In this document: positions 44,125 through 63,945 of the stretch, piece by piece
How positions within the stretch are numbered: the stretch's first letter is position 1
How the letters are laid out: every line of letters begins with the position of its first letter
Source of the DNA: Alphaproteobacteria bacterium
GTDB lineage: Bacteria; Pseudomonadota; Alphaproteobacteria; Micavibrionales; Micavibrionaceae
DNA: 64,000 nucleotides
Assembly (NCBI GenBank): GCA_017302165.1
Contig: JAFLCW010000001.1
Span: forward strand, 558,001 to 622,000
Direction: 5' to 3'
Program-made: the position numbers and the translations under genes
Notes under the pieces: generated by a model
The model's database searches: none
Seen by the model: the letters and a program-made list of their open reading frames with translations, nothing else
Told to the model about the DNA's origin: nothing

Positions 44125-44200
44125 GCACCCGTAGCTCAGTGGATAGAGCGTTGCCCTCCGGAGGCAAAGGCCGTAGGTTCGAATCCTACCGGGTGCGCCA
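44125..44200 (+). tRNA. tRNA-Arg (anticodon CCG)
   Basis: 76 bases with an encoded CCA. Acceptor stem GCACCCG/CGGGTGC, D arm containing AGCTCAGTGGATAGAGC, anticodon stem TTGCC/GGCAA with loop CTCCGGA (anticodon CCG), and T arm GTAGG TTCGAAT CCTAC. It lies directly beside the serine recombinase of the mobile element, whose antisense frame runs through most of it, so its 3' end is the likely attachment site. Confidence 0.97.
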
Positions 44201-45737
44201 TCTCATTTCCACCCATGGATAACCGACTTAAGACGTTGAACGGCAATGCTGTTTTGACGTTGGAAAACCCTTCACCCCGACGATACGGCACACGCTCCGC
44301 GAAGGCCAAACGAAGCACCAGACGGCGGTAGTGAAGCTGTCCACTTTGCCAGAGATTCCAAGGGCTTGAGAGGAATTCCATGGCGCGTTGGAACAAATCG
44401 TCAAAGGCATATTGTGGTTTGCTCCAATTCTGGAGCTTTTCTACGATTAGGAGCTTGCGGGTTTCCAGATCGGCGATCTTCTTTTCATAGGCCGTGATCA
44501 CCGACGGATTGTCTGTCTCGACAATCCGCTCCAGCAGTTTTTCCGAAAGCGCGGCGATCTCTTTCATCTCCCGCTTGAGATGAGCCGAAGCTGACACGGC
44601 TTGCTCATGGCGTTGATCCCAGGCGTTTTCGAACATCGCTCTCGCCAGATCGAACAGATTCTGTGTCGGCTGAAGCGATTGCAACAGCGCGTCGAATTCG
44701 CCTTCGATCTGCGCACGCGGGATCGACTTGCGCGCGCTGGCACATCCCTTGGTAAAGCAGTGGTAGTACGCGTGCTGCTTGCCAGTCGAAGATTTCGCGT
44801 AGCAGGCCGTGAGCGGCTTGTGACAATCGGCGCAACACACGAATCCGCGCAACGGGAACTCGGCATTGATATCCTTACGTGCCGGTGCCTTCGCCTTTTC
44901 GTTGAGGCGCTCCTGATTGCGCTCGAACGTTGTGGCTGAGATCAGTCCTTCATGATGCCCTTTGCGGCGCGGCACGCCCCAGTTCGGCGCTTCGACAAAT
45001 CCGGCATAGACAGGCCGGGTGAGCATTTCGGTGATGCGCTGGTTTCGGATTTCGCCGTTCGGCAGGTCTTTGGGGAACTCCGGGCATGATTCCAAAAACC
45101 GTTTCACTTCGACCTGGGTTTCAAACCGGCCTGAGGCAAATCCTTCGAGCGCTTCAGTCAGCTGAGAAGCAAATGGCTCTTCTTTCACGAGCATGTTGCC
45201 GTGACCCGGCACGCGCTTGTAGCGGTAACCTACCGGAGCCGCGAAGGGCCAGTAGCCATTCTGAACGCGTGCGCGCATGCGGTTGATGGTCTGATCTCTA
45301 TTCTTGTCGCGCTGGTGCTGAGAAACCGACGCGAGCAGGTTCTCGATCAGAACGGAGTCCGAATCCTCGCCGAACTCAATTGACGGACTTTTGAGAATGC
45401 CGCCCGCTTCATCAATTGCCGTGCGAAGTTTCAAATGCGCTTCGATGCCGCGCGCGAGGCGCGAGATGTCATCGATGATGACGACGATCTGCTGCTTTTT
45501 CGCGTGCTTTCGTAAGTATGCCAGCATCGCCTGCATGCCGGGACGGGACGTGAGCGAGCCCGTCATGTCGTCCGAGAAAATCTGCACGACCTCCAAACCC
45601 TTGAGGCGTGCAAATTCCCGGCAGCGAGTCTCTTGGGAGCCAAGGCCATCCCCGCGCGTCGATTGCTTGATGGACGACACGCGCGCGTAAATGACCGCCC
45701 GTGTCTGATCTGAATATTCTCTGGCATTTGGCTTCAC
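44136..45737 (-). CDS. Large serine recombinase (integrase)
   Basis: 533 residues with a GTG start at 45737 (GGAGG five bases upstream, overlapping the previous stop). The N-terminal catalytic domain has AVIYARVSSIKQS (Ser nucleophile in RVSS), GLGSQETRC and DDISRLARG. The recombinase domain follows (NGYWPFAAPVGYRY). A zinc-ribbon holds two Cys pairs (FVCCADCHKPL and HCFTKGC), and a coiled-coil segment comes near 390-440. The last ~20 residues, from MAHPVGFEPTAFASGG on, are the antisense translation of tRNA-Arg, so the ORF runs into the host tRNA gene. It presumably integrates and excises this element at that site. Confidence 0.92.
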   Translation of the reverse strand: MKPNAREYSDQTRAVIYARVSSIKQSTRGDGLGSQETRCREFARLKGLEVVQIFSDDMTGSLTSRPGMQAMLAYLRKHAKKQQIVVIIDDISRLARGIEAHLKLRTAIDEAGGILKSPSIEFGEDSDSVLIENLLASVSQHQRDKNRDQTINRMRARVQNGYWPFAAPVGYRYKRVPGHGNMLVKEEPFASQLTEALEGFASGRFETQVEVKRFLESCPEFPKDLPNGEIRNQRITEMLTRPVYAGFVEAPNWGVPRRKGHHEGLISATTFERNQERLNEKAKAPARKDINAEFPLRGFVCCADCHKPLTACYAKSSTGKQHAYYHCFTKGCASARKSIPRAQIEGEFDALLQSLQPTQNLFDLARAMFENAWDQRHEQAVSASAHLKREMKEIAALSEKLLERIVETDNPSVITAYEKKIADLETRKLLIVEKLQNWSKPQYAFDDLFQRAMEFLSSPWNLWQSGQLHYRRLVLRLAFAERVPYRRGEGFSNVKTALPFNVLSRLSMGGNEMAHPVGFEPTAFASGGQRSIH

Positions 45738-47764: not shown

Positions 47765-48027
47765 GCACCACCCGGCTTCTTGGCAAAACGTAGCCAGTCG
47801 CATTTGCCATTGGACGGGTATTCGGTGATCACGCCGTAGAAGCCGATGAACGTGCAGCGTGTGTAATGCCGGGCTTCAAAATCGCCGTAGCTGGCATGCC
47901 GGGGCGTGCTCCAATCGTACGAGAAGATCACATGCGGCGAGCCGCCCAGAGCCACCGTAAGACAAAGGCCAATCGGCACGACGATCCACAAGAAGAAACT
48001 AAGTCTGAGAAAGCGCGTGCGATTCAT
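47761..48027 (-). CDS. Small membrane-anchored protein of the transfer operon
   Basis: 88 residues. One N-terminal hydrophobic segment (about 8-30) serves as signal anchor or signal peptide, followed by an aromatic, positively charged domain with two Cys (RCTFIG and KCDWLR). Its start overlaps the stop of the coupling ATPase by four bases, so it belongs to that operon. The function is unknown; a small periplasmic or inner-membrane partner of the transfer apparatus is plausible. Confidence 0.6.
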   Translation of the reverse strand: MNRTRFLRLSFFLWIVVPIGLCLTVALGGSPHVIFSYDWSTPRHASYGDFEARHYTRCTFIGFYGVITEYPSNGKCDWLRFAKKPGGA

Positions 48028-49412
48028 GATGCGTCTCCGTCATCAGGCGCGGAGAGAAACACCTTGGGATCAGGCGGAAGCCGCCCGCCTTCGAGCGGAT
48101 TATCACCCAGATCAAAACAGTAGGGGGCTATCTGGTTCTGCCGCACTTTCTTGGCATGGATAAAGCCGAGGCCAGCGATATGGATGATCTGTTCGTCGTC
48201 CGGCAAGTTCAGGAGTTCGTGCGCCGAGAAGAGCCGTTCACGCCCGATGCCAAGATTGCCGGAGAAGCCGGGCTGATCAGAATTCAGGCCAAGTCCGCGA
48301 GACACATGAAGTTTTTCTCCCATGGCCTTGGAAACACGCTCGGCTTCTTCGAAGTTGCTGAACTTGAGCCACTGCTTCACAGACGCGTTTTCTTCGAGGA
48401 TCGCCGTTTCTTTTTCTCCGTACTTGCGAACGATATCTTGTCTAGACTGCGTGATGTACACGGCCTTGACCCCATATGCCCGGAAGATGGTGATGCGACT
48501 GACTGCCTCTTTCAATGGTGAATTGCAGAATTCATCCAGCACCAGACAGACTCGCCCCACCGGTCCTGCGAGCTGGGCATGGAGCAGGGACAGGACATGG
48601 AGAGCGACATAGGCTCCGAGTCGCTCAGCATGCTGAACTGGGCTGACAAAGCAGACGATCCATCCGTCCCGGATCAACTCGGCATGTGTCATGTCTGGTT
48701 GCCGTCCGGCACTTGCGAGCGCGCCAGAAGCAAAAGACTTAAGCGAACTCAATGCCGCTCGGTGGTGCTGATAAAAATGCTCCGGGTTTTCGGCTCTGAA
48801 ACTCAGCCAGGATGCGGCTTCGCTCTTGAGAGTTGAGTCCGGATCGTCCGCTTCGTCTGCGAGTACCCGGCTCAAAAACTCAGTATCCGCGACAAAGCTT
48901 TGAAGCGCGCCTGGGGTGGCAAGTCTTGCATGCCGTGTCAGCAAAAGTTTGAGCAACAGACCGAGCAATTCTCTCGGACTTTCGCGCCAGTACAAATTTT
49001 TTGCGTCGTCCCCCGGTTCCGATATGAGCGTATGCGCAATGCCTTCAGCCGCGAGTGGCAATTCACCTGGGTTGTCCGAAGCGACCGAAACTGCCGCGCT
49101 GAAAGGGTTCACGTCGATACGGTAGGGATAGTCTGCCCCCATCACCCCAAAATCATCGATGACCGCAAATTTGCGCCCGTGCATTCGGGCCAGCTCTGCG
49201 ATCTGATGAGCGATCTCACCTGACTTGGTATCGTTGATGAACATTGCTTGGGTCCTGTCCGCCAGCAACGACATGATGGTGGGGATCGCGACGCACGTCG
49301 TCTTGCCGCCGCCCATCGCGGCCAACACCAATGACGAAGCATTGGCGGTCGGTTCAAAAATCGGACGCCCGTCGGGGATGGTCAGACCTAAAATTCTCTT
49401 GCGCGCACTCAT
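48024..49412 (-). CDS. Type IV coupling protein (VirD4/TraG-like ATPase), lacking a membrane domain
   Basis: 462 residues. Walker A AAMGGGKTTC (about residues 32-41), a VirD4/TraG-type INDTKSGEIAHQIAEL segment, Walker B VCLVLDEFCNSPL and the VYITQSRQDIV motif. Coupling proteins hand relaxase-DNA complexes to the secretion channel. Unlike normal members, it has no N-terminal membrane segments: the P-loop is almost at the start. The small protein encoded immediately upstream, overlapping by four bases, has such segments and may supply them. The enzyme is also short for the family (usually 550-650). Confidence 0.85.
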   Translation of the reverse strand: MSARKRILGLTIPDGRPIFEPTANASSLVLAAMGGGKTTCVAIPTIMSLLADRTQAMFINDTKSGEIAHQIAELARMHGRKFAVIDDFGVMGADYPYRIDVNPFSAAVSVASDNPGELPLAAEGIAHTLISEPGDDAKNLYWRESPRELLGLLLKLLLTRHARLATPGALQSFVADTEFLSRVLADEADDPDSTLKSEAASWLSFRAENPEHFYQHHRAALSSLKSFASGALASAGRQPDMTHAELIRDGWIVCFVSPVQHAERLGAYVALHVLSLLHAQLAGPVGRVCLVLDEFCNSPLKEAVSRITIFRAYGVKAVYITQSRQDIVRKYGEKETAILEENASVKQWLKFSNFEEAERVSKAMGEKLHVSRGLGLNSDQPGFSGNLGIGRERLFSAHELLNLPDDEQIIHIAGLGFIHAKKVRQNQIAPYCFDLGDNPLEGGRLPPDPKVFLSAPDDGDAS

Positions 49413-51641: not shown

Positions 51642-52727
51642 TTATTCTAAGCTTTCGGCTTCCATGGCCGCCAGACACAGCGCACCAATCACACCGGGCT
51701 TGCCGATTTCTGCCCCTTGAGGATTGGCGCAAATCGTAATGTATGTCTCCGGATTCGCAAGTTCCCCGTAATGTGGAAAGCTCGCATCCCCAGCTATCTG
51801 GCTAAAAGCTGTTCGGACGCGGTCGATCAATCCCGGCACGCCCATGACCCGCCCGCCCATGACAATCGCATGCGGACTGACGATGCATGTGAGGTTCCAC
51901 AGCATATGCGCGAGATAATAGGCCTCGCGCTGCCACATCAGGTGGTTCGGGTTCTGCTTGAGATCATTGAAGGTGTAAGGTCGGCAACGTGCATTGATCG
52001 CCCCGACAGAAGCCAGCGCTTCAATCGATCCGGGGTTTCGCGCTCCGGCATGTACAAATTCGGCTTCCTGTTCATCGATGACGTCATAGCCAGACGTCCA
52101 ACGCGGCACCATGATCTGACCGGCTTCGGGATGGAGCCTGCCTTGCCAACTGGTGCTTGCCCGCATGAACGCGGCGCCGATTCCAAGGCTGACTTTCACG
52201 AAGGCAAACACCTGGTCGTCGAGTGTTTTGTCCCGCGCGCCGTTCGCCTGAAATGTCCGCAGATAGATTTCTCCAGCCACTGCCGCCGCGACATCGGTTT
52301 CCACGGTCACCAGTGGCGTGCGCCCATCTGCGCCCGTCAATCCCTCTCGGAACAGTTTCGCGAGGGGCTTGAAGCCAAGGCGATGCCCGTGTGAAGTCGA
52401 CTGAAGTCGGCCATAGCTTGGCAGCGATTTCTCTCGGTCAACACGGCTCAGAGATTCAAATGAACCATAACAGGCCACACCGACTGAGCGCATGCCTTTG
52501 GTGTTCGCCTTGATCCACCCACAGCAGGCGCTGATAACGTCTTCGACATTGCCTTTGCCAAATTCAAACTGGGCTGAGTAGTGTGCAGAGGTTCCCGAAA
52601 AGTTGCCCTGATCCAGTGTCAGGCCTGATAGAGCCGTCTTGGCTGAATTTGGATGAGCATCTGATCCCACGATGACGTCAATATAGTCGTCGGTGATGTA
52701 TACCCCGGCAAGATCAGCATCCGGCAT
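51642..52727 (-). CDS. ROK-family (sugar kinase/regulator-like) protein
   Basis: 361 residues, good ribosome site (AGGGGGG). ROK features: LVTVETDVAAAVAGEIY (the catalytic-Asp region), FVKVSLGIGAAFM in place of the usual GTGIGGG loop, HPEAGQIMVPR (ROK signature His/Glu/Gly) and a late IVMGGRVMG ATP-domain motif. The usual N-terminal DxGGTK phosphate loop is not seen, nor the CxCGxxGC zinc motif. It may be a diverged fructokinase-like enzyme or a sugar-sensing protein without kinase activity. A sugar kinase is unexpected in a mobilisation region. Confidence 0.75.
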   Translation of the reverse strand: MPDADLAGVYITDDYIDVIVGSDAHPNSAKTALSGLTLDQGNFSGTSAHYSAQFEFGKGNVEDVISACCGWIKANTKGMRSVGVACYGSFESLSRVDREKSLPSYGRLQSTSHGHRLGFKPLAKLFREGLTGADGRTPLVTVETDVAAAVAGEIYLRTFQANGARDKTLDDQVFAFVKVSLGIGAAFMRASTSWQGRLHPEAGQIMVPRWTSGYDVIDEQEAEFVHAGARNPGSIEALASVGAINARCRPYTFNDLKQNPNHLMWQREAYYLAHMLWNLTCIVSPHAIVMGGRVMGVPGLIDRVRTAFSQIAGDASFPHYGELANPETYITICANPQGAEIGKPGVIGALCLAAMEAESLE

Positions 52728-53068
52728 CTGTTGCCCCCCTCAACGTTTAAGCTTTTCTACATACATCGCACATCTCCCTGATTTCCAGCTTATGCCGACG
52801 TCGGTGACGTATCCAATAGGCCTGATCCGGGCTGGCCCGCTCCATTCGGCTCCGCCTCCCGTGTGGCCGGATCGCTGACGCACCGCAAGCGGCAGGCCTT
52901 TGGCGTCCCCGGACTTACGACACGACCGTCCATCGAGCGGTCTCGCTGACGCTCGGGCATTTCTCGTTTTTTCGTTTGGACGCTCGGCGCTGGCCAGGGG
53001 AGCATGCGCGGGGTAGTCCCTCATCGGAACACCTCGCCATGGAAACCCTAACCAAGCGAGGACACACC
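52728..53068. other. Non-coding GC-rich region between ROK and ardA genes
   Basis: About 340 bases without a convincing gene, between divergent genes. It holds a 6-bp inverted repeat CGAGCG/CGCTCG (52934-52939 and 52950-52955) and a T-rich patch (TCGTTTTTTCG). It must carry promoters for both neighbours. Leading-region ardA genes in conjugative plasmids are often transcribed from single-stranded-DNA promoters; whether one is folded here cannot be decided by eye. Confidence 0.4.
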
Positions 53069-53575
53069 ATGACGACCCTATTTGCCCAGCCCTACGACAT
53101 TTGCGCCGCCGGATTCTACTTTAAGTCCAACGACGAATTCACCGCTAAGGCGACTGCCGCCACAAATGACTATGGCGACCCCGTCGAAGAATTCGAAATT
53201 CAGTTCATTGATGGCGCAGACATAGACTGCGAACTGGCGCGCGCATGGGGACTTGATCAGTCAACCTTCTCGGCCTTCTTCGAGGCCGTAGCCAACTGGG
53301 ATGATCACCAGAAACTCAGCTTCATCATTGCCGTTGGGGAATGCGGGTATCAGTTCGACCCCGGCAGGGACGACCCGGAACGCTTCGAGGTCGATATCTA
53401 TCACGTTGACAGCCTGAAGGAGCTGGCCGAGCAGTTCGTTGATGAAGGCCTGTTTGGAGATATTCCGGAGCATCTTCGGAACTATCTCGATTATGACGCC
53501 ATCGCGCGGGATCTGGCGTGTGACTACGCCAGCACCACCATCGCGGGCAACCGCCTTGCGTATCGTTGCGCGTGA
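53069..53575 (+). CDS. ardA: ArdA-like antirestriction protein
   Basis: 168 residues from the ATG at 53069 (GAGG eight bases upstream). The protein is strongly acidic with the ArdA domain order: an N-terminal YDICAAGFYF/GDPVEEFEIQF strand region, DQSTFSAFFEAVANWDDHQK, and the C-terminal part FGDIPEHLRNYLDYDAIARD. ArdA mimics B-form DNA and inhibits type I restriction enzymes, protecting incoming mobile DNA. It sits in the mobilisation region near another small gene that it overlaps or abuts, as ardA often does in leading regions. Confidence 0.88.
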   Translation: MTTLFAQPYDICAAGFYFKSNDEFTAKATAATNDYGDPVEEFEIQFIDGADIDCELARAWGLDQSTFSAFFEAVANWDDHQKLSFIIAVGECGYQFDPGRDDPERFEVDIYHVDSLKELAEQFVDEGLFGDIPEHLRNYLDYDAIARDLACDYASTTIAGNRLAYRCA

Positions 53576-53586
53576 TGGAGCAGGCC

Positions 53587-54015
53587 ATGTCAGACCGTTT
53601 GCCCGATCACGAAGGCTACCCCGTGACTCACTGCTGGTACTATCACCTCGGCGGCAGAATTCCGTATCCCAAGGAAATCCTCGCCCATGTCCGGGAATGC
53701 GCAAGCCGGGGGTATCTTTACAACGACATCCAAGAGGCTGGACAGAAGCCGGAGCCGCACCGCGCGAGATTGCTGGCCAAGCTTGAAGCCAAAATCCGGA
53801 GCGATCTCCGGCGAGACCTTACAGCCTACCGTCACCGCGTTCGCGAACTGAGAGACGTTCGCGCCCATGGGGACGACATCCCCCACGAGCCCTGTTGTAA
53901 GGATATCCATGTTGGCGTCAGCCTGACATTTTCCCATGTCTTTGGAGGCTTCGCCAATCTCGAAACCATCAAGCAACTGGGATCGAGACAGCTGGACTTG
54001 TTCGGGATGCTCTAA
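53587..54015 (+). CDS. Unknown protein coupled to ardA
   Basis: 142 residues from the ATG at 53587 (GGAG seven bases upstream; a start at 53575 overlapping the ardA stop is possible). Arg-rich, predicted helical, with a few Cys (HCWYYH, ECASRG, PCCKD). No family recognised. Its 3' end overlaps that of the converging resolvase gene by four bases. Co-transcription with ardA suggests a role in establishment after transfer, but this is not shown by sequence. Confidence 0.55.
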   Translation: MSDRLPDHEGYPVTHCWYYHLGGRIPYPKEILAHVRECASRGYLYNDIQEAGQKPEPHRARLLAKLEAKIRSDLRRDLTAYRHRVRELRDVRAHGDDIPHEPCCKDIHVGVSLTFSHVFGGFANLETIKQLGSRQLDLFGML

Positions 54016-54569
54016 CCGAAACGCCGTTTCAGCGCGCGGGAGAGCGTCCACCGCGCCACGCCGTACTCATTCGCCAGCGCGCGGAGCGTGCCGCTTCCGC
54101 TTTGGAGCTTTTCGTACGCGGCTTGAAGCTGATCATCCGTGAGCGCCGGAGGCCGCCCGAGCCGTTTGCCACGAAGCCGCGCCGCTGCAAGGCCTTCTTT
54201 CGTCCGCTGAATCAGAACGCGCCGCTCGAACTCTGCGCAGGCACTCATCACCGTGTAAACCAGCATGCCGCCTGGCGTGGCCGTATCCACCTGAAGATTG
54301 GCGATCTTGAATTCTATCCCCCGCGCACGCAGACGCTCAGCCTGGGTAATGGCATCAAGAGTAGAGCGAAACGCCCGGTCGAGGTCCCAGACGATCAGGG
54401 TGTCACCTGCTGTCAATTCGCTGATCACGCGCTCAAAGATGGGACGTTTCGCCGAGACAGCCGAGAGCGTTTCGAGATGAAGCTCATCGCATAGCGCCGC
54501 AAGCCCGTCGATCTGCCGATCCGGGCACTGTTCCTGTGTTGATATACGCAAATAGCCAATCGTTCGCAT
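54012..54569 (-). CDS. Small serine recombinase (resolvase/invertase)
   Basis: 185 residues from the ATG at 54569. The catalytic domain begins RTIGYLRISTQEQ (Ser in RIST), followed by QIDGLAAL, LIVWDLDRAFRST (the conserved D-R pair) and a helical E region. The C-terminal DNA-binding part is a Hin-type helix-turn-helix: GKRLGRPPALTDDQL and ALANEYGVARWTLSRAL. Such enzymes resolve dimers, invert DNA or move in Tn3-type transposons. No transposase accompanies it, so a role in dimer resolution or inversion within the element is most likely. It converges with the ardA pair. Confidence 0.92.
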   Translation of the reverse strand: MRTIGYLRISTQEQCPDRQIDGLAALCDELHLETLSAVSAKRPIFERVISELTAGDTLIVWDLDRAFRSTLDAITQAERLRARGIEFKIANLQVDTATPGGMLVYTVMSACAEFERRVLIQRTKEGLAAARLRGKRLGRPPALTDDQLQAAYEKLQSGSGTLRALANEYGVARWTLSRALKRRFG

Positions 54570-54792
54570 GTCCCGAGATGGCACCCGCAGAGCCCTCAAA
54601 AATCTCGCTCAGAATCGACCGTTTACGTTGAATTCTATTTAAGATGTGATTAGATGTTGCTGGACGCAATGAACACGAGGGCTTTTGCCGTGATCGCATC
54701 TGCTTTCAGCCCCGCCGAAGGACTCGCACCAAAAGGGTCGTTTTTGAGCATGTTGCCCGGATAGAACGGCCAGAACAAAGCTCACGACACTG

Positions 54793-56001: not shown

Positions 56002-59000
56002 CTATTGCTCGCGCTTGCTGAGATCTATTCCAATGACGCGCAACTCGTCGACGCCAGGATATCTAGGCGATAGCTCAAGCCAGTAATCCTGCAGCGCTTT
56101 CACGGCACCTTCAAAATCTACCATCGTGCCATTTGGCAGCTGCCAGCGCTGACGTTTCTTTCCACGGTTCACGAGCAGGAAAATGCCTCGTGACGATCGG
56201 CGATCCCGCAAATAGTCGCCTAACAACTGGTTTTCGAATCGCTCGAACAGCGTCGGACCTGGGTGCTTATCGGCGATCTTAAGTTCCGTGGGTACTGGCG
56301 ATGAGATACCGACGCCGTGGAAACGAAGATCTGTGCGCTTCTCGTCGGCAAGCTCTTCTTCCTGCGATATCTGGTAGCGACCAGCGGACATACGTTCGAG
56401 TTCATGGCCGAAATAGTTGCGCATGACTTCTTCTTGATCGATGTCCAGAAGCACCTTAGCGACACTGGTATTCCCGTTCTCCATATCATCCTTGAGGTCG
56501 AGGAGATGGTTCACGGCGAGCTCAAACAGTTCCCGATGGTTGCGCGGTGTGCGTTCCTGATCGTTATAGAACTCGCGCACCTGCTCGGGTGTCCACGCGT
56601 CCATATCAGCGTCTTGCGTGGCCCTTTGGAGCGCTCGATATGCAATCCATTTGCTGGTATCGACGTTGGTTTCTCCTGCTGCGATATTCGTCATGGCGAT
56701 ATAGGCCTCCTTCCCGCTGATTGAATTCAGCAAGTTGAAGATCGCGTCTCGGGAGCTTTGGGCGCGGTCTCGCAGGGTTGGCGAGTAGGCCTCACCGTTT
56801 GCCCTGTTGATGTCTTCAGATCGATGAACATGCCGGTGCAGCAATACGTAGAGCTGCTCCAGAAACTGCGGCTCTTTGAACGCAGTTCGCCCGACTGGAA
56901 AGTCACTGTGTCGGTCGCCGAAAAGATGCGTGGCATAGCTCATCGCCAAATCCACCGACTCCCGGTTCTCCGACAGCCCATCGAGGTAGGATGAGAACGC
57001 GGGGATTGCTGCCGCTGGCTCTATCCCCGTCCACACCGCAAACCACTGTACCGGATGCTTCGTATCGGGATCCGCTGCGCGCTTCTTGGCTAGAGCCAGC
57101 ATTTCTGCGTCCGGTACACCGGAGGCGAGTACAATCTGCAAAAGCTTGTTGAGCGTCTCTGCATTCCTCGGCTCACGGTCCAGCAGTATCTCAAAGATGG
57201 ACGGACCCAGCTCAGGCCAAGCCCATTTTCCGGACCAGGCGAGATCGGAGATTATGTAGTGCATCCCGCCTTCCGGCTCGGAGGCGATCTCAAACTCCAC
57301 TTCCCGCATCATCAGCTTGGCAAGCGTGCCCTTGTGTTTCGCGTACAGGCGGGGGAACCAATCAGGAAAGCCATTGAGTTCATGTGCCGCAAAGAGCCAG
57401 GCTCGCTCGGCTTCCGGCTCTGACACGCTACTCGGCCAGTCAGGTGTTTCGCGGGCTTCTATGGCAAGACCGGTAAGGCCGAGTATGGTCGATGCTGTTG
57501 TGGTGTTGGCTTCCGCGCCCTCCGAACGAAGTTTCGGGGTGGCACGATGCGCATGGAGGATGGCTCCATCGCGATACGCTCTTGCGATCTCCTCGCCAAA
57601 CTCCGGAACAAGCGAGCGCCAGTCGCCGGAGGTCCATTTGCCTTTCTGCTCCGACTTGTTTCGCGCTTGGTGGTGCAGGTACCATTGGGTTTTGGACACG
57701 TCGTTCGAGTTTGGAAATCCAGGGTCGCGAAGCGTATCGAGATGCTGGCCGATATACTCCCGCGACTCACGCAGGTTGTCCTTTTCCCGCCGAGCGCGCG
57801 CCTTCGCCTGCTTTTTCCATTTCAGATTCTGCCTAGAAAACTCGTCATCTTGCTTTGGCGGATGCAGGAAAAGCTCTAGCCGAGCGCCCAACTCCGGGAC
57901 GCCGGAAACAGCGCTTTTCAGCTGCTTCAGTCTCGCCGCGCCCCGCCCTCCCTGAACATAGGAGTCGATAGCGCCGGATAGTGCCATCAGCTTGTCATTC
58001 ATCGCACTACGCGCAGCAATTTCGCCGATGAAGTAGTCGAAGTCCTCGGCAGAAAACCTCCAAAATGCTTGAAAGGAATTCGCCTGCCAGATGTTGGTGA
58101 TAGGGCCGAAGTTGGTGCCCTCATGATCCTTGCGGGCCCGTTCGACCTCGGCCCAAAACAAGGCGCGGTTGAGCTCCCGCCAATCCGGCACCAGTTTTGA
58201 AAAGTCGGCTTTGAGATCACGAATATCTGTATCGAACCTCTTCGATACCGGCAGTATCCCCATAACGTTCAAGGACGCAGCGGTCATTGCACCGGGGTGG
58301 CGTTCCCTTACCAGACGCTCCACAGCGGCCGCAGCGGGATAGAAAAGCCATCCGAACCGTGTTGAAATCTTGCAGAACCGTGCATCGAAGAACGGAGCGA
58401 CAGACAGAAGTGCGTGAAGTCGTTCCAGGAGTTTTAGCAGGCTGCCGACCGGCATCCTTTCAACGAGTTTAGTGACACCATCTTTAAAGTGATCGACCGT
58501 ATACTTTGCGAGCGGTTCAGCTCGTGCGATCTCTCCAAGCAGCCAGTCGACCTCCTCGTCAGCGCCTTCGAGCGTGTCGCAAATCTCATTTAGCCACTCT
58601 CGGTCAGGTGGTCTCGACTCTCCTGAGATCGCGTTCCGCACATCGCGCATATCGTCCTTTGACCCGACTGCATGCACCGCGCGGATAGCCGTCATCCGGT
58701 GATACTTTCCGGCATTGGCCATGAGCGCGTGTTCTTTCGCCTCTGGAAGGAGGTTCTTCAGTTCACCGAGCCAAATCATTCGCAGCAGGAAGCTCGCCGC
58801 CTCTTTATCGTTCGAGTGCGCTTGCAGCAGCCTGCGGATATCTTCACTAAGATCGGAATGCGCAAAGCGTTGAACCGCTGCAAAGTCCGTCGGTGCTCTC
58901 GGAGAGCGTCCTGGCACTAAGTCCTGCACTACTTCCGTGAGTATCTCTTGGCGTGTGGGCAGGGGCAGTGAAGCGGGATCGCCACCCTCGAAGAGCACTT

Positions 59001-60375
59001 CAGGCGCAAGGGCCCGCACACGTTTGCGGATGCGATCATCATAAAGCGCAACCCAAGGCAGGATGGGCCGCATGACGGGCACTATGATGTTGACCCCATA
59101 ACTCGTCTTGAAGAACATATCCTCGATCGCGCGGCGAGACGCAGGTTTTGCCAGCATCTCCCTCAGCCATTCGGCCGCCAGATATTCTCTCACCGTTCTG
59201 TGGTGAAACCGGACCGCCCCATAAATGGCAGCATCAAAAATTGGGCGCTCAAGCAGCGCTTTCCGTTCCGGAGGAGACCAATCAGACAAGACTTTATCGA
59301 CAGCGATGCCTTTGAGGCCATCGTGCCCTTCAGGGACTTGAATTGCAGGGTTGCGTCCAAGCGTTGTTGCGGCTGCGAGAAGCTTGGCACCCAGCAGCGC
59401 CTTCGCCTCTGTCAGATGGACTAGATCCGCACGCTCCTGATCGCGCTCCTTGAGACGGCGCTCCACTCCATCTTCCATGATGGTACGGCGAGTACCAATC
59501 GCGCCGCGTTTCAACCAGGAAGCAACGAGGTCTTCGAGGTCTTGCGGGAGAGCTGCAAACGACCACGCGTCCGCTCGCTCGATCGCATCGCCGAACGCTT
59601 TCGTGTTGTTGACGCCACGCGCGGCCGCAAACGTCTCAACCTGATCCCGTGACAATCCCTCCAGTGTGACTATTCTGAATGGCCCGGACGTCTTCGGCTT
59701 TTCTTTCTTCGACTTGGATTCAGACGTGTCGATGCTCGGCTCATCGCCATCGTGGTCCTCGTCGCCCATAAGATCATCAACAAGGTCGTCTGCGGACGGC
59801 GGCGTATTGTGAATATCGTCGTTGGCGACTTTGGTTATCTCTGTAAAAGGCAGATGCACTCTTGCGCGATCCAAGTCGGTTTTTGGCCGCCACGCTGACA
59901 TTCGGCCGCTCAGAAATATATGAACCCTGTCGAAGGCAAGCTTCAGCTTTTCTCCGAGTAGCTGAAGCGCGAGTTCGAAATCCCGAGGATGGCGCAGCCG
60001 CGCCTCATCGACTGAATCCAGGAAGAGCCAACCCTCCGCGCCGGACGCTACCCATTCATTGAATTCGCCTTCGTTTCCGACATCGAATGCGCTCGAGAAA
60101 TGCTGCGGGATGTTCTCAAGCCTTAGGAAAAATGCAGCCTTGCCCTCGGACCGAAGTTTTTTGGCGATTGTGCGAAGCTCTTCGGTTTTCCCCGATCCTG
60201 CCTCAGAGAGAATTACGACCCGATAGTTCTGCAGCAGCTCTGCCCAGCGAATGCCGTCGGACACATACAACGCCTTCGACAGGTCCGCATCGTCGCTCTC
60301 ACTTGCGTAGCTTGAAAGTTCTCGAAAGCTGCGGTCTAGCGGTACATGCTGAAAATCTTCCTGATCACCTGACAT
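56002..60375 (-). CDS. Giant NACHT/STAND-like NTPase with C-terminal PD-(D/E)XK-like nuclease motif
   Basis: 1457 residues from the ATG at 60375 (AGGTG nine bases upstream; a GTG at 60387 is possible). Walker A SEAGSGKT (about 57-64), Walker B WLFLDSVDEARL (116-127) and a sensor-like FLSGR (about 154-158) make an AAA/NACHT NTPase. The FHHRTVREYLAAEWL motif (about 390-404) is typical of NACHT/STAND proteins. A long helical region without clear repeats follows (about 410-1300). The C-terminal domain (about 1320-1457) has D near 1349 (RTDLRF) and ELK near 1364-1366 (PTELK), with a preceding Glu helix: a PD-(D/E)XK nuclease pattern. It starts 15 bases after rloB. Probably a sensor that activates an effector nuclease (inference from family). 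Confidence 0.75.
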   Translation of the reverse strand: MSGDQEDFQHVPLDRSFRELSSYASESDDADLSKALYVSDGIRWAELLQNYRVVILSEAGSGKTEELRTIAKKLRSEGKAAFFLRLENIPQHFSSAFDVGNEGEFNEWVASGAEGWLFLDSVDEARLRHPRDFELALQLLGEKLKLAFDRVHIFLSGRMSAWRPKTDLDRARVHLPFTEITKVANDDIHNTPPSADDLVDDLMGDEDHDGDEPSIDTSESKSKKEKPKTSGPFRIVTLEGLSRDQVETFAAARGVNNTKAFGDAIERADAWSFAALPQDLEDLVASWLKRGAIGTRRTIMEDGVERRLKERDQERADLVHLTEAKALLGAKLLAAATTLGRNPAIQVPEGHDGLKGIAVDKVLSDWSPPERKALLERPIFDAAIYGAVRFHHRTVREYLAAEWLREMLAKPASRRAIEDMFFKTSYGVNIIVPVMRPILPWVALYDDRIRKRVRALAPEVLFEGGDPASLPLPTRQEILTEVVQDLVPGRSPRAPTDFAAVQRFAHSDLSEDIRRLLQAHSNDKEAASFLLRMIWLGELKNLLPEAKEHALMANAGKYHRMTAIRAVHAVGSKDDMRDVRNAISGESRPPDREWLNEICDTLEGADEEVDWLLGEIARAEPLAKYTVDHFKDGVTKLVERMPVGSLLKLLERLHALLSVAPFFDARFCKISTRFGWLFYPAAAAVERLVRERHPGAMTAASLNVMGILPVSKRFDTDIRDLKADFSKLVPDWRELNRALFWAEVERARKDHEGTNFGPITNIWQANSFQAFWRFSAEDFDYFIGEIAARSAMNDKLMALSGAIDSYVQGGRGAARLKQLKSAVSGVPELGARLELFLHPPKQDDEFSRQNLKWKKQAKARARREKDNLRESREYIGQHLDTLRDPGFPNSNDVSKTQWYLHHQARNKSEQKGKWTSGDWRSLVPEFGEEIARAYRDGAILHAHRATPKLRSEGAEANTTTASTILGLTGLAIEARETPDWPSSVSEPEAERAWLFAAHELNGFPDWFPRLYAKHKGTLAKLMMREVEFEIASEPEGGMHYIISDLAWSGKWAWPELGPSIFEILLDREPRNAETLNKLLQIVLASGVPDAEMLALAKKRAADPDTKHPVQWFAVWTGIEPAAAIPAFSSYLDGLSENRESVDLAMSYATHLFGDRHSDFPVGRTAFKEPQFLEQLYVLLHRHVHRSEDINRANGEAYSPTLRDRAQSSRDAIFNLLNSISGKEAYIAMTNIAAGETNVDTSKWIAYRALQRATQDADMDAWTPEQVREFYNDQERTPRNHRELFELAVNHLLDLKDDMENGNTSVAKVLLDIDQEEVMRNYFGHELERMSAGRYQISQEEELADEKRTDLRFHGVGISSPVPTELKIADKHPGPTLFERFENQLLGDYLRDRRSSRGIFLLVNRGKKRQRWQLPNGTMVDFEGAVKALQDYWLELSPRYPGVDELRVIGIDLSKREQ

Positions 60376-60390
60376 GTAACCGTGCACCTA

Positions 60391-61032
60391 TTACTTCTTG
60401 AGCCCGCGCAGCACGGTCACCAGTTCGTGCATGTCTGTGTAAGCTTCATTGCCGGGACGACGGCTAAACCTCTGCTTGAGGATCTCTCCTCGATCTAGCG
60501 CGGTCTGAATGTTGGGGACCGTCGCGGCATAGCTGCCCTTATTGCCCTTTTCGTAGTCGACGATATGTTTTTTCAGCCGTGCCAATGTTTCGGTGCGATG
60601 CAAGAAGGCCTGGATGTCTTCAAAGTGGAGCAGTAGCCAGAGCTCGAAGCTTTGCACTGTAACTATGGCTTCGAAGGCTGTGGGCACGCCCTCGTCATTC
60701 TTCCACTTCTTATCGCGGGCCTCGGCCATGTCGAGCGCCGCGATATAGGTCTGATGATCGTCGCGATCGAACACCGCGTAGACCCGCTCATAGCCTTTCG
60801 TTCGCTTGAATTCTGTCTCGGCAGATTTCACGACTTGTTTGGGCTCCGTGCCAAGGACACTGTGCAGCACCCTGACGTCCACGCTGGAAATTCTGGCTTC
60901 CTGTCTGATTTCGTCCAGGTAGTTCGGTTCGGTTTTCGAACCCTCACAGACGATAAGAATACGTTCTCGCGCGGTGCGCTTTGGCTTTCCACGCTTCAAA
61001 TCCTTCGATGACCGGCCGCGGTTCTTAGGCAT
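60391..61032 (-). CDS. rloB: RloB/AbiLii-like TOPRIM protein
   Basis: 213 residues. A basic N terminus is followed by a TOPRIM-type core: ILIVCEGSKTEPNYL (conserved Glu, about residue 31) and YAVFDRDDH (DxD-like). RloB family proteins form the partner of the RloA ATPase; the pair corresponds to AbiLi/AbiLii (abortive infection) and resembles AriA/AriB of PARIS in having an ATPase and a TOPRIM protein. The TOPRIM part is thought to be the effector nuclease. It overlaps rloA by eight bases and is followed by the giant NTPase gene. Confidence 0.85.
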   Translation of the reverse strand: MPKNRGRSSKDLKRGKPKRTARERILIVCEGSKTEPNYLDEIRQEARISSVDVRVLHSVLGTEPKQVVKSAETEFKRTKGYERVYAVFDRDDHQTYIAALDMAEARDKKWKNDEGVPTAFEAIVTVQSFELWLLLHFEDIQAFLHRTETLARLKKHIVDYEKGNKGSYAATVPNIQTALDRGEILKQRFSRRPGNEAYTDMHELVTVLRGLKK

Positions 61033-62287
61033 TGGTCGTCAGCCGCTTCAGAATGGGGACAGCGCCATAGCGCCCTCCTAGATAACCACGCTCAAGCGCC
61101 TCGTTCTTCCGCGGAGAGAAGTCAGTGAGTGGGTACAGGTTCGACGCCTGCTCTTCGTCTTTTTCGGTGAACCAGATCTGGTCCCGCCTCAGATGCGCGC
61201 CGTCGAGAAGTGAGGTGTCATGCGTCGTGAAGATCAGCTGCGCGTTGCTCTTGTTGACCTCGGGGTCGTGGAACATCTCGATCAGTTGGCGAACAAGAAG
61301 AGCATGCAGGCTACGGTCGATTTCATCGACGATCAGCACCTGCCCGCGCTCGAAAATATCGAAGAGTGGGCCGGCGAAGCTGAAGAGCTTTCGCGTCCCT
61401 TCCGATTCATCCAGAAAATCAAAGACCGCCGAGCCCTTGCTCGATGAGTGCCGGAAAGTCGGCACCACGACGTTCTGCTCTTGGCGGCCATGATGCGTGA
61501 AACCGCCGGTCGCCAGATCGATGTTGAAGCTCTGCAGCTCACTCTTAACCTCTTTGAGCGCGATCTCATCGATGCTGATGTCAGCCTCCGAGAGGAACTG
61601 ACGCACACGTCCCGACTTCTCGCGGACGATGTGATTGATCGTGTATTCGGGCGCAGGTCCGTTGCCATTCTCGAAGATGACGAGGCGTTGCGAGATGTAG
61701 TCGAACACGGGGCGCAGCGAGTCACTGTTGAGCTGGATGGCTGTCGACAGGAAGAGCGCATTAGGGCGCGTGGCCTCTTTCCAGACGTTGCGATTGCCTT
61801 TGAAGTGGGCCTCGCTGAACTTGTAGTCGTCTTCACCCGTCTCGGTATTGATCTCGCGCGTAAACCAGGTCTGCGGCTGGCGCGTTTTGTAAACGAGCAG
61901 CCACTCTTCAACGATGCGGCTGGCGGTCAGAGAGAAGCCGTACTGGTAGCGGACCCCCTTTAGCAAGAACGTAAGCTCAAACTCAGTGGGCTCCTTGTCC
62001 GTCTCGGGATCGAGGCGGAAGGGCTGGATGTTGAGCTGAGCGTCGGGCTTTAGGTTTGCCGATTCCACGACAACTCCGCGCATCAACTGGAGCGCGCGGA
62101 TGAGGTTGGATTTGCCGCTAGCATTGGCACCATAAACGCCGGCTGAGCGAAGCACGCGCGGAACGGACGCATTGTCCGTCGAAACAATATTGGAGCTCTC
62201 TAGATCCTTGTCGGGGGATGCTAGAAGCGAAAGACGGTTCTCGCCTTTGAAGGACCTGAAATTTGTGACGCGGAACTCAATTAACAT
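61025..62287 (-). CDS. rloA: RloA/AbiLi-like AAA ATPase
   Basis: 420 residues from the ATG at 62287 (GGAGG five bases upstream, stronger than the alternative at 62299). An AAA_15/OLD-like ATPase with RVTNFRSFKGENRLSL, Walker A GVYGANASGKSN (about residues 55-66), a signature-like region around residue 300, Walker B GQVLIVDEIDRSL and an H-loop LIFTTHDTSLLDG. Such ABC/SMC-like ATPases sense phage proteins or DNA ends in defence systems (AbiL, PARIS, retron-Eco8-type). It heads the operon rloA-rloB-NTPase. Confidence 0.88.
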   Translation of the reverse strand: MLIEFRVTNFRSFKGENRLSLLASPDKDLESSNIVSTDNASVPRVLRSAGVYGANASGKSNLIRALQLMRGVVVESANLKPDAQLNIQPFRLDPETDKEPTEFELTFLLKGVRYQYGFSLTASRIVEEWLLVYKTRQPQTWFTREINTETGEDDYKFSEAHFKGNRNVWKEATRPNALFLSTAIQLNSDSLRPVFDYISQRLVIFENGNGPAPEYTINHIVREKSGRVRQFLSEADISIDEIALKEVKSELQSFNIDLATGGFTHHGRQEQNVVVPTFRHSSSKGSAVFDFLDESEGTRKLFSFAGPLFDIFERGQVLIVDEIDRSLHALLVRQLIEMFHDPEVNKSNAQLIFTTHDTSLLDGAHLRRDQIWFTEKDEEQASNLYPLTDFSPRKNEALERGYLGGRYGAVPILKRLTTNA

Positions 62288-62444
62288 CGCGACCTCCATT
62301 CTTATCTAATTTTTGCATATAAAATGCAAAAAGTCGAGACATTTATGGTCTACTACCTAGTTTTTCCCGCCAGCACCCATGAGACAAATTTCGGGTTATC
62401 ACGAAGAGAGGAATTCTGGTTCATCGAAGCCACAAGGAGCGAAG
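62288..62444. other. Upstream region of the defence-like operon
   Basis: It holds the rloA promoter region: the perfect palindrome TTTTTGCAT/ATGCAAAAA (62310-62332, see separate entry) and, further up, IS-like sequence (CCCATGAGACAAATTTCGGGTT) leading into the transposase remnant. Confidence 0.5.
62310..62332 (-). promoter_or_regulatory. Palindromic operator or promoter element before rloA
   Basis: TTTTTGCAT, a 5-base centre, then ATGCAAAAA: a perfect 9-bp inverted repeat about 23 bases upstream of the rloA start codon. It also contains a possible -35 (TTGCAT). A repressor site or a hairpin in the mRNA 5' end are both possible. It is the only strongly A/T-rich dyad in the element upstream of a gene of this type. 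Confidence 0.5.
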
Positions 62445-62661: not shown

Positions 62662-63945
62662 CTACCGCTTTCTGGTGTGAGGACGATGTAGTGGAGCGGG
62701 TGCATTCTCTCGCTGAAACTCGGCAAACAGCCCAAACCGTTTCACTCGGTCCGGCGTTAGATCGCGGTGCAACCGCCGCAGTTGGACAGCTTCAGCCTGC
62801 CGAAGCCGCTGGATGTCCTTTTGTAAGGCCTGCCGTTCCAAAAGGTGCTGATCAATCTGGGCTTGGCGTTCGGTCCAGTCGCGTTTTATGGCGGCCTCTG
62901 CCTCATCGGAATTCTGCTTCAGCAGGGATTTGTAATTCCCCGTCATGCGGAGCCAGAGCGCCTTCAGGCCTCGCGGTAACCGCATCGCGCGAGTTTGAGC
63001 TTCCAGGAGAGTTCGTGCTGTCTGCTTCTCATCCAGAGCTTGCCGCTCCGCGCGTTGACGGGTGACGAGGGCTCGGCGTCTGGTATCCAGCTTCTCCCGC
63101 TCAGTTGCGAAGCGATCACGTGCCTGTTCCACAAATTCGCTGAGCTTGGGTGAAAGTGCGGACGCCAATTCACGTCGTGCCTTCTGGGCGTCAGGCAGAT
63201 CAGCGGGTGATCCTAATCTGGATTCCAATGCCTTGGTGTTCTGGCCTGTCCAGCGCGAGAGTGAATAGACCTCTCCTTTGAGATCGACAGCCACGAAGCC
63301 ACGACTATCGCCACGCGCAAGGGCAAATCCCCGGACAGCCAGAGCCTGCCCGAATGCCTTTCGGGAGTCCGATGATTCCCAGCATTCGGCGAAAAGGGCT
63401 TTCAGTGCTTTTGGGTCGGCCTTGCGCCGCTTGGCCTGTTGCCATTCGGCGAGGGTGAAGTTCAGGGGATCGCGGGCTTCCGGGTTCACAAGGCCGCGCG
63501 GCATCTGCCAGCCATGTTCCCGGTAGAGTTCACGGGAGATATCCGTGAGCTTCCGCTTGAAGTGGGGGAGATGCACGGCGGTCATCGTTTCGGCATGGAT
63601 GCGGCTCCACACGACATGCGCATGGCGACGGCCCTCCTTTTCATGGAACAGGACAGCGCGCGGCTGGCCTTCAAAGCCAAGCTTCCGTTCGATCCGAGAA
63701 ATCACCTTTTCGAAATCCTCGACCGGGACACTGGCTAGAGCAGGCGGGTTCAGGCTGAGAGAGAACAGATACTGACGGCACCGTGTCCCCCGGCTGACGG
63801 CATCCGCTTCCCGGAACGCCCCATAGAGATCATCGGCACTGAAGCCCCGCAATTCATGCAGGGTCACGTGATCGTTCTCACGGGTGTTAAGAAGATGCGC
63901 CGCCAGCTCCTGACCGAATCCACGCTGTGAGCCCTTGAGTATCAT
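62662..63945 (-). CDS. Relaxase / mobilisation nuclease (MobA/VirD2-like)
   Basis: 427 residues, GGAGG six bases before the ATG at 63945. The N-terminal relaxase domain (about 1-190) has the MILKGSQRGFGQELAAHL start, YLFSLSLNPP and the metal-binding HxH motif GRRHAHVVWSRIH (about residues 105-117). The middle part carries the RGFALARGDSRGFVAV segment common in MobA-type relaxases. The C-terminal ~170 residues are a long Arg/Gln/Glu-rich coiled coil. It nicks oriT and is carried into the recipient with the strand. Its start overlaps the stop of the previous gene (ATGA), so it is co-transcribed with it. Confidence 0.92.
   Translation of the reverse strand: MILKGSQRGFGQELAAHLLNTRENDHVTLHELRGFSADDLYGAFREADAVSRGTRCRQYLFSLSLNPPALASVPVEDFEKVISRIERKLGFEGQPRAVLFHEKEGRRHAHVVWSRIHAETMTAVHLPHFKRKLTDISRELYREHGWQMPRGLVNPEARDPLNFTLAEWQQAKRRKADPKALKALFAECWESSDSRKAFGQALAVRGFALARGDSRGFVAVDLKGEVYSLSRWTGQNTKALESRLGSPADLPDAQKARRELASALSPKLSEFVEQARDRFATEREKLDTRRRALVTRQRAERQALDEKQTARTLLEAQTRAMRLPRGLKALWLRMTGNYKSLLKQNSDEAEAAIKRDWTERQAQIDQHLLERQALQKDIQRLRQAEAVQLRRLHRDLTPDRVKRFGLFAEFQRENAPAPLHRPHTRKR

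What the first reader, a model, noticed from the sequence alone, without database searches (positions are those of the whole stretch)
56002..62287. Three-gene operon: RloA/RloB (AbiL-like) plus giant NACHT-NTPase with nuclease-like C terminus
rloA and rloB overlap by eight bases, and the giant gene starts 15 bases later. RloA/RloB pairs correspond to AbiL-type systems, and large NACHT/STAND NTPases with nucleases to Avs-like systems. Fusing both into one operon is not a combination I know, so it may be a composite or undescribed anti-phage system. The palindrome upstream and the relaxase nearby fit a defence island carried on a mobile element.
Basis: partly seen in the sequence, partly recalled or inferred. 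Interest (0 to 1): 0.85.

Follow-up and report, generated by a model that had tools for sequence, protein, structure and literature searches.

The report
Two stacked anti-phage systems, one operon
Two genes of a known phage-defence type (RloA and RloB) sit directly in front of the gene for a giant protein of a family catalogued as anti-phage (HyoA), and relatives of all three likely travel together in a few other bacteria, so the trio is predicted to give two layers of defence that would be switched on together.

The parts
61025..62287 (-). rloA (AbiLi): OLD-type ABC/AAA_21 ATPase; longest ORF from ATG 62299, likely start ATG 62287 (420 aa)
   Evidence: PF13304 132.5 bits (cut-off 27); PADLOC AbiLi 346.5 bits; closest relatives are 420 aa
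62108..62131 (-). RloA Walker A (residues 57-64 of the 424-aa frame)
   Evidence: G57, N59, A60, G62, K63 at least 95% conserved in 119 sequences
61316..61336 (-). RloA Walker B region, D325-E326
   Evidence: at least 95% conserved in 119 sequences
60391..61032 (-). rloB (AbiLii): predicted TOPRIM-type nuclease partner, overlaps rloA by 8 bases
   Evidence: PF13707 119 bits (cut-off 31.5); AbiLii 86.7 bits; TOPRIM nature recalled and as stated for AbiL in PMC12409363 (passage)
60760..60768 (-). RloB D89-R90-D91, candidate TOPRIM DxD
   Evidence: at least 95% conserved in 109 sequences; TOPRIM role recalled
60943..60945 (-). RloB E30, candidate TOPRIM catalytic Glu
   Evidence: at least 95% conserved in 109 sequences; role recalled
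56002..60375 (-). hyoA: NACHT domain antiphage protein, 1,457 aa from ATG 60375 (GTG 60387 also possible)
   Evidence: NCBIfam NF058534 1606.5 bits (cut-off 1200), profile 1-1430 of 1430
58948..60354 (-). HyoA NACHT-WHD-like core, residues 12-480 (GTG numbering), with Walker A 61-68 and LDSVDE 123-128
56005..56541 (-). HyoA C-terminal PD-(D/E)XK-like nuclease domain, residues about 1283-1461
56278..56331 (-). HyoA D1353-x14-E1368-L-K1370, candidate PD-(D/E)XK active site
   Evidence: D1353 98%, E1368 100%, K1370 98% conserved in 117 sequences
62305..62337 (.). inverted repeat between the relaxase gene and rloA, possible operator or promoter element
   Evidence: significance not tested
62662..63945 (-). 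MobA/VirD2-type relaxase of the element
   Evidence: PF03432 54 bits; a MobC-like gene follows, crossing the window's end (L093:3942-4379, 30.2 bits)
54012..54599 (-). serine resolvase downstream of hyoA
   Evidence: PF00239 118.8 bits
52976..53575 (+). ArdA-type antirestriction protein of the element
   Evidence: PF07275 38.4 bits (cut-off 27)
48024..49412 (-). type IV coupling protein-like gene of the element
   Evidence: PF02534 67.7 bits
44136..45737 (-). large serine recombinase overlapping the tRNA-Arg end; likely left end of the element
   Evidence: PF00239 80.7 bits and PF07508 22.1 bits; tRNA-Arg 44125-44200

Best explanation
The three genes are likely one operon that stacks two defence modules: RloA-RloB, an AbiL-type ATPase with a predicted TOPRIM nuclease partner, and HyoA, a giant protein with a predicted NLR-like NACHT domain and a predicted C-terminal PD-(D/E)XK nuclease. 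Proposed working: HyoA stays silent until its middle region (residues about 480-1250) meets a phage product; ATP-bound NACHT domains then assemble, bringing C-terminal nucleases together to cut DNA (inferred). RloA holds RloB inactive, as AriA holds AriB in PARIS; a different trigger, plausibly a phage inhibitor of the first layer, would release RloB, which would cut nucleic acid (tRNA by analogy with AriB) and stop the infected cell (inferred). Shown: gene order, family membership, conserved catalytic residues, model folds, shared contig lengths elsewhere, the RloB-like end before HyoA in Devosia. Inferred: co-transcription (a 15-base gap leaves no room for a separate promoter outside rloB), both activities, the division of labour. 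The trio rides on a likely 20-kb integrative mobilizable element at a tRNA-Arg.
Confidence: 0.58

Rival explanations
1. Neutral stacking: RloAB and HyoA are both cargo of mobile elements that happened to land next to each other; the spacing reflects an insertion hot spot behind rloB and no functional link exists.
For: RloAB stands directly before sucA (10 bases), trmD (5) and an enoyl-CoA hydratase gene (12) in other genomes of the class (ORF starts set mechanically) and before different large R-M or methyltransferase genes in Rhizobiaceae plasmids (13-29 bases). None of 31 other HyoA loci has an RloA or RloB match. Devosia Root413D1 likely lost RloAB and kept HyoA.
Confidence: 0.24
2. One composite system: RloA-RloB and HyoA form a single machine, in which RloA gates or senses for HyoA, or HyoA releases RloB, so that all three are needed.
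Against: HyoA without RloAB at 82% identity (Devosia Root413D1), with an open frame of 1,459 codons, and in the 28 other HyoA loci whose upstream side is visible; RloAB without HyoA in 20 of 20 genome loci, the downstream side being visible in 18. XGJD_8 combines a HyoA closest to the window's with an RloA closer to other lineages.
Confidence: 0.15

Closest known systems
HyoA (NCBIfam NF058534, NACHT domain-containing antiphage protein)
   Same: Full-length match, 1606 bits against a cut-off of 1200, all 1430 profile positions
   Different: No RloAB at any of the 31 other loci examined; here it follows rloAB
AbiL / RloA-RloB
   Same: AbiLi and AbiLii models, order ATPase then RloB, overlapping frames
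   Different: A third, co-directional defence gene follows at once
PARIS (AriA-AriB)
   Same: ABC-type ATPase plus predicted TOPRIM nuclease pair; one AriA model scores 135.8 bits with RloA
   Different: RloB matches no AriB model at E up to 1; a working analogy, not membership
Avs / other bacterial STAND systems
   Same: STAND NTPase and PD-(D/E)XK nuclease in one protein; Avs4 appears in both fold lists
   Different: Order reversed (Avs layout recalled): NACHT at the extreme N-terminus, nuclease at the C-terminus; no PADLOC Avs model matches at E up to 1
EruA (NCBIfam NF058535)
   Same: Related NACHT antiphage family, 160.9 bits
   Different: Far below its cut-off of 1000

Membership tests
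HyoA (NF058534) | Whole-protein score above the curated cut-off of 1200 bits | tested here: met
   1606.5 bits, positions 1-1430 of 1430; the only match in its genome
HyoA (NF058534) | NACHT NTPase domain | tested here: met
HyoA (NF058534) | Protects against phage | not testable with these tools
   Rests on NCBI's family name; no paper found
AbiL (RloAB) | AbiLi-type ATPase next to AbiLii/RloB-type partner | tested here: met
   346.5 and 86.7 bits, PF13707 119 bits, frames overlap by 8 bases
AbiL (RloAB) | Abortive infection | not testable with these tools
   No assay
PARIS | AriB effector with the AriB family signature | tested here: not met
   RloB matches AbiLii and weakly PDC-M12B, no AriB model at E up to 1
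Avs | N-terminal effector before the STAND NTPase (layout recalled) | tested here: not met
   NACHT core aligns from residues 7-12 of the model in most of the top rows, leaving no room for an N-terminal effector
Avs | C-terminal TPR-like sensor (recalled) | not tested
   Residues about 480-1250 were not folded; the last 180 residues are nuclease-like
PD-(D/E)XK nuclease (HyoA C-terminus) | D ... (D/E)xK catalytic residues | tested here: met
   D1353, E1368, K1370 conserved in 98-100% of 117 sequences
PD-(D/E)XK nuclease (HyoA C-terminus) | Restriction-endonuclease-like fold | tested here: inconclusive
Integrative mobilizable element | Integrase at a tRNA plus relaxase | tested here: met
   Serine recombinase at tRNA-Arg, T4CP-like gene, MobA-like relaxase, MobC
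Integrative mobilizable element | Flanking att repeats | tested here: inconclusive
   No 12-base repeat of the tRNA gene itself in the next 76 kb; one 12-base direct match (44386 and 79724) starts 186 bases past the tRNA and far beyond the host genes, so it is not taken as att. Serine recombinases need only short cores (recalled); no second genome of the genus is held to show an empty site

The most novel reading that the evidence does not exclude
RloA-RloB is a guard of an NLR: it fires when a phage disarms HyoA, making the trio a bacterial counterpart of sensor-plus-guard immunity in one transcript, with RloAB a portable guard cassette that can be placed in front of different defence enzymes (HyoA here, type IIG or type ISP R-M enzymes on Rhizobiaceae plasmids).
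Probability: 0.2. Interest if true: 0.78.

Novelty: new variant of a known kind. Interest (0 to 1): 0.5.

Why it matters
If RloAB is a portable second layer, one would expect it in front of unrelated front-line enzymes on mobile elements, as it is here (HyoA) and on some Rhizobiaceae plasmids (type IIG and type ISP R-M genes). That would extend the PARIS idea (sense the phage's anti-defence, then abort) to an NLR-type system, and it gives a natural experiment: Devosia sp. Root413D1 carries a closely related HyoA after likely loss of RloAB. HyoA is also a good place to study an NLR-like protein with the effector at the other end. If the stacking is neutral, the case still warns that a few-base gap does not define a defence system, since the same pair stands as tightly before sucA and trmD.

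Tried and rejected
Rejected: (1) 'Undescribed NTPase': it is NCBI's HyoA. (2) 'Avs member': layout reversed, no PADLOC Avs match. (3) 'PARIS member': no AriB match. (4) 'The pairing is unique to this window': I believed this, because no HyoA locus fetched by then held RloAB, until contig lengths from the protein searches and the RloB remnant showed otherwise. (5) 'Tight spacing proves a three-gene system': RloAB stands 5-12 bases before housekeeping genes elsewhere.

Led nowhere: viral-contig scans for HyoA and RloA found no relative; solved-structure sequence searches gave nothing useful for any of the three; in 136 genomes of the family of Devosia Root413D1 the four with an RloA match were at most 35% identical; paper searches for HyoA, RloB with NACHT, AbiL with NACHT and operon found nothing relevant (the one paper holding 'HyoA' is on another subject); in the DefensePredictor paper PMC13092281 I saw passages and one section, with no Hyo or Rlo in its main text; att repeat search; empty-site test impossible, as no other genome of the genus is held. 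The profile search of the L004 frames put the RloB remnant first but only at E 0.08; the positional test is the stronger one. One search had no positive control; one search repeats it with one (RloA 32 of 32, RloB 30 of 32 control loci; HyoA loci 0 of 31 for both). Some of those 32 control loci were found with RloB or contributed nothing to the profiles' building; the window's own proteins are in the profiles. tblastn gave one weak RloA match in a HyoA locus (L137, 29% over 99 columns, E 2.4e-4), which the profile did not support; I read it as an unrelated ATPase. The middle of HyoA was not folded (two structure jobs used).

Full report
What is there. Three genes lie head to tail on the minus strand. 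rloA (61025-62299; the ATG at 62287 gives the 420 aa of its closest relatives) overlaps rloB (60391-61032) by eight bases. The giant gene ends at 56002 and starts at GTG 60387 or, more likely, at ATG 60375, which leaves 15 bases after the rloB stop and gives the 1,457 aa of its two closest relatives. Residue numbers below count from the GTG. An inverted repeat at 62305-62337 precedes rloA (not tested against chance).

What the proteins are. RloA: PF13304 132.5 bits and AbiLi 346.5 bits; RloB: PF13707 119 bits and AbiLii 86.7 bits. Among close relatives RloB keeps E30 and D89-R90-D91, the places expected of a TOPRIM site (role recalled), and RloA keeps Walker A and B. The giant has almost no Pfam match (12.3 bits to a STAND model, cut-off 34) but scores 1606.5 bits against NCBIfam NF058534, 'NACHT domain-containing antiphage protein HyoA', cut-off 1200.

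Do they belong together? First the evidence against. I fetched 31 other HyoA loci (L004-L010, L029-L038, L114, L132-L144); in 29 the upstream side is visible (L005 and L114 are cut by contig ends). Profiles of RloA and RloB found nothing in any of them at E 0.1, while they found RloA in 32 of 32 and RloB in 30 of 32 control loci. tblastn gave one weak RloA match (L137, 29% over 99 columns, E 2.4e-4). HyoA was matched in 14 of 385 class genomes (9 over the cut-off, own included), 5 of 142 order genomes (3 over it, own included) and 33 of 397 genomes of the order of Devosia Root413D1 (9 over it); not all of these places were fetched. RloB (PF13707) was matched in 18 of 385 class genomes (own included). 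Of its 21 places outside the own genome I fetched 20 (one below the cut-off was left); RloA was beside it in 20 of 20 and no HyoA match longer than 100 columns in any, the downstream side being visible in 18. Two genomes, G257 and G504, match both models at different places (the HyoA match in G257 is below the cut-off). Of 61 plasmid records with HyoA (60 listed) none is, by eye, among the listed records with RloA (40 of 185) or RloB (40 of 51).

Then the evidence for. All fetched loci but L004 and L005 are distant (about 46% identity or less). Among the closest HyoA relatives the picture changes. The protein searches give the length of the longest contig of each cluster. Among 120 listed HyoA and 120 listed RloA relatives five lengths coincide exactly (15,851; 312,851; 346,903; 35,607; 25,446), all within the top ten of both lists; three coincide with RloB too (lists). 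For 312,851 the source names the same strain, Devosia sp. XGJD_8, for all three proteins. That is 5 of 16 HyoA clusters at 65% identity or more (15 of 1,299 aa or longer and one fragment), and 0 of the other 104. The lists are capped (best 120 of 213 HyoA, 1,991 RloB and 8,000 scored RloA relatives), so further shared contigs with more distant RloA could be missed. Shared length shows the same contig, two of them under 26 kb, not adjacency.

A scar. Devosia sp. Root413D1 (L004) has HyoA at 82% identity and no RloB match in its genome. DNA similarity to the window runs 54 bases past the HyoA GTG into the end of rloB, and in frame, with a stop just before HyoA, stands a peptide matching the last residues of RloB: local score 52, reached by 0 of 20,000 shuffles, against 11 to 19 upstream of 17 other HyoA genes. 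A profile search of the whole locus put it first but at E 0.08. So this lineage likely had RloB before HyoA, lost it, and kept an open HyoA frame of 1,459 codons. HyoA therefore does not seem to need RloAB. Distances of HyoA and RloA over the six gene sets correlate only weakly (r 0.45; 43 of 720 permutations), because XGJD_8 joins a HyoA like the window's to an RloA nearer to other lineages: the two parts may be re-assorted.

RloAB in front of other things. Of 11 RloAB plasmids opened (of 51 records with RloB), four carry a large R-M or methyltransferase gene 13-29 bases after rloB: L039 annotated as type ISP R-M, L041 type IIG (490 bits), L043 type IIG/ISP (943 bits), and L096, annotated as DNA methyltransferase with the same layout as L043 but not scanned. 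In L041, L043, L044 and L096 a recombinase gene in the same direction follows further on, as the resolvase at 54012-54599 does in the window; the three tested (L041, L043, L044) are 35-38% identical to it. But in other genomes RloAB also stands before sucA (L075, 10 bases), trmD (L076, 5) and an enoyl-CoA hydratase gene (L083, 12), counting from mechanically set ORF starts. Tight spacing is thus no proof of partnership.

The carrier. A large serine recombinase (44136-45737) overlaps the end of tRNA-Arg (44125-44200); then come a coupling-protein-like gene, ArdA, the resolvase, hyoA, rloB, rloA, a relaxase and, across the window's end, MobC; LysE, ABC1-kinase and COQ9 genes of host type follow. 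This is very likely an integrative mobilizable element of about 20 kb. No repeat of the tRNA gene was found in the next 76 kb.

Mechanism. Best reading: two modules, one transcript. HyoA as NLR-like sensor with its own DNA nuclease; RloA-RloB as an OLD-ABC/TOPRIM pair that works like PARIS, whose AriA holds AriB until a trigger such as Ocr releases it (PMC12409363, passages seen; the same passages list AbiL among ABC ATPase-Toprim associations). The BREX survey PMC12839542 (passages seen) describes PARIS-like pairs recruited as backup to BREX; RloAB before HyoA or before R-M genes would be the same theme. Activities, triggers and co-transcription are inferred.

Verdict. Observation confirmed; interpretation partly supported; a clade-specific stacking of two known defence kinds, not found in the papers searched, with a testable guard hypothesis.

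Noticed in passing
L075:187-3688, L076:5397-6757, L083:8602-10131, L084:2732-6627: RloAB stands immediately before housekeeping genes in other genomes of the class: sucA (10 bases), trmD (5), an enoyl-CoA hydratase gene (12); in L084 purQ/purL-like genes follow 183 bases on. The pair may favour insertion inside or at the head of core operons.
   Followed up: partly
L039, L041, L043, L096: On four Rhizobiaceae plasmids RloAB is followed after 13-29 bases by large type IIG / type ISP R-M or methyltransferase genes, in three of the four with a recombinase gene further on: a possible cargo slot.
   Followed up: partly
window 52976-53575: The same element carries an ArdA-type antirestriction protein close to the defence genes; if RloA senses antirestriction proteins as PARIS does, the element must avoid triggering itself.
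   Followed up: no
L008; Burkholderia glumae plasmids (hits H5-H20): HyoA relatives are broken: in pieces in Rhizobium sp. 32-5/1, split around a transposase gene in many B. glumae plasmids. Described only.
   Followed up: no
L006:16669-17946 and L010:12669-14183: SIR2-family genes lie near HyoA on two plasmids of different classes of bacteria (4.4 kb and 0.4 kb away).
   Followed up: no
L046:1-7639: RloAB in Fibrella lies next to a Piwi-domain gene, a helicase and a DNA methyltransferase.
   Followed up: no
L034:12137-16246: A second very long ORF (1,369 codons) ends 78 bases before a HyoA relative, in the same direction; not identified.
   Followed up: no
window 51642-52727: A ROK-family gene (PF00480, 43.3 bits) sits inside the likely mobile element.
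   Followed up: no
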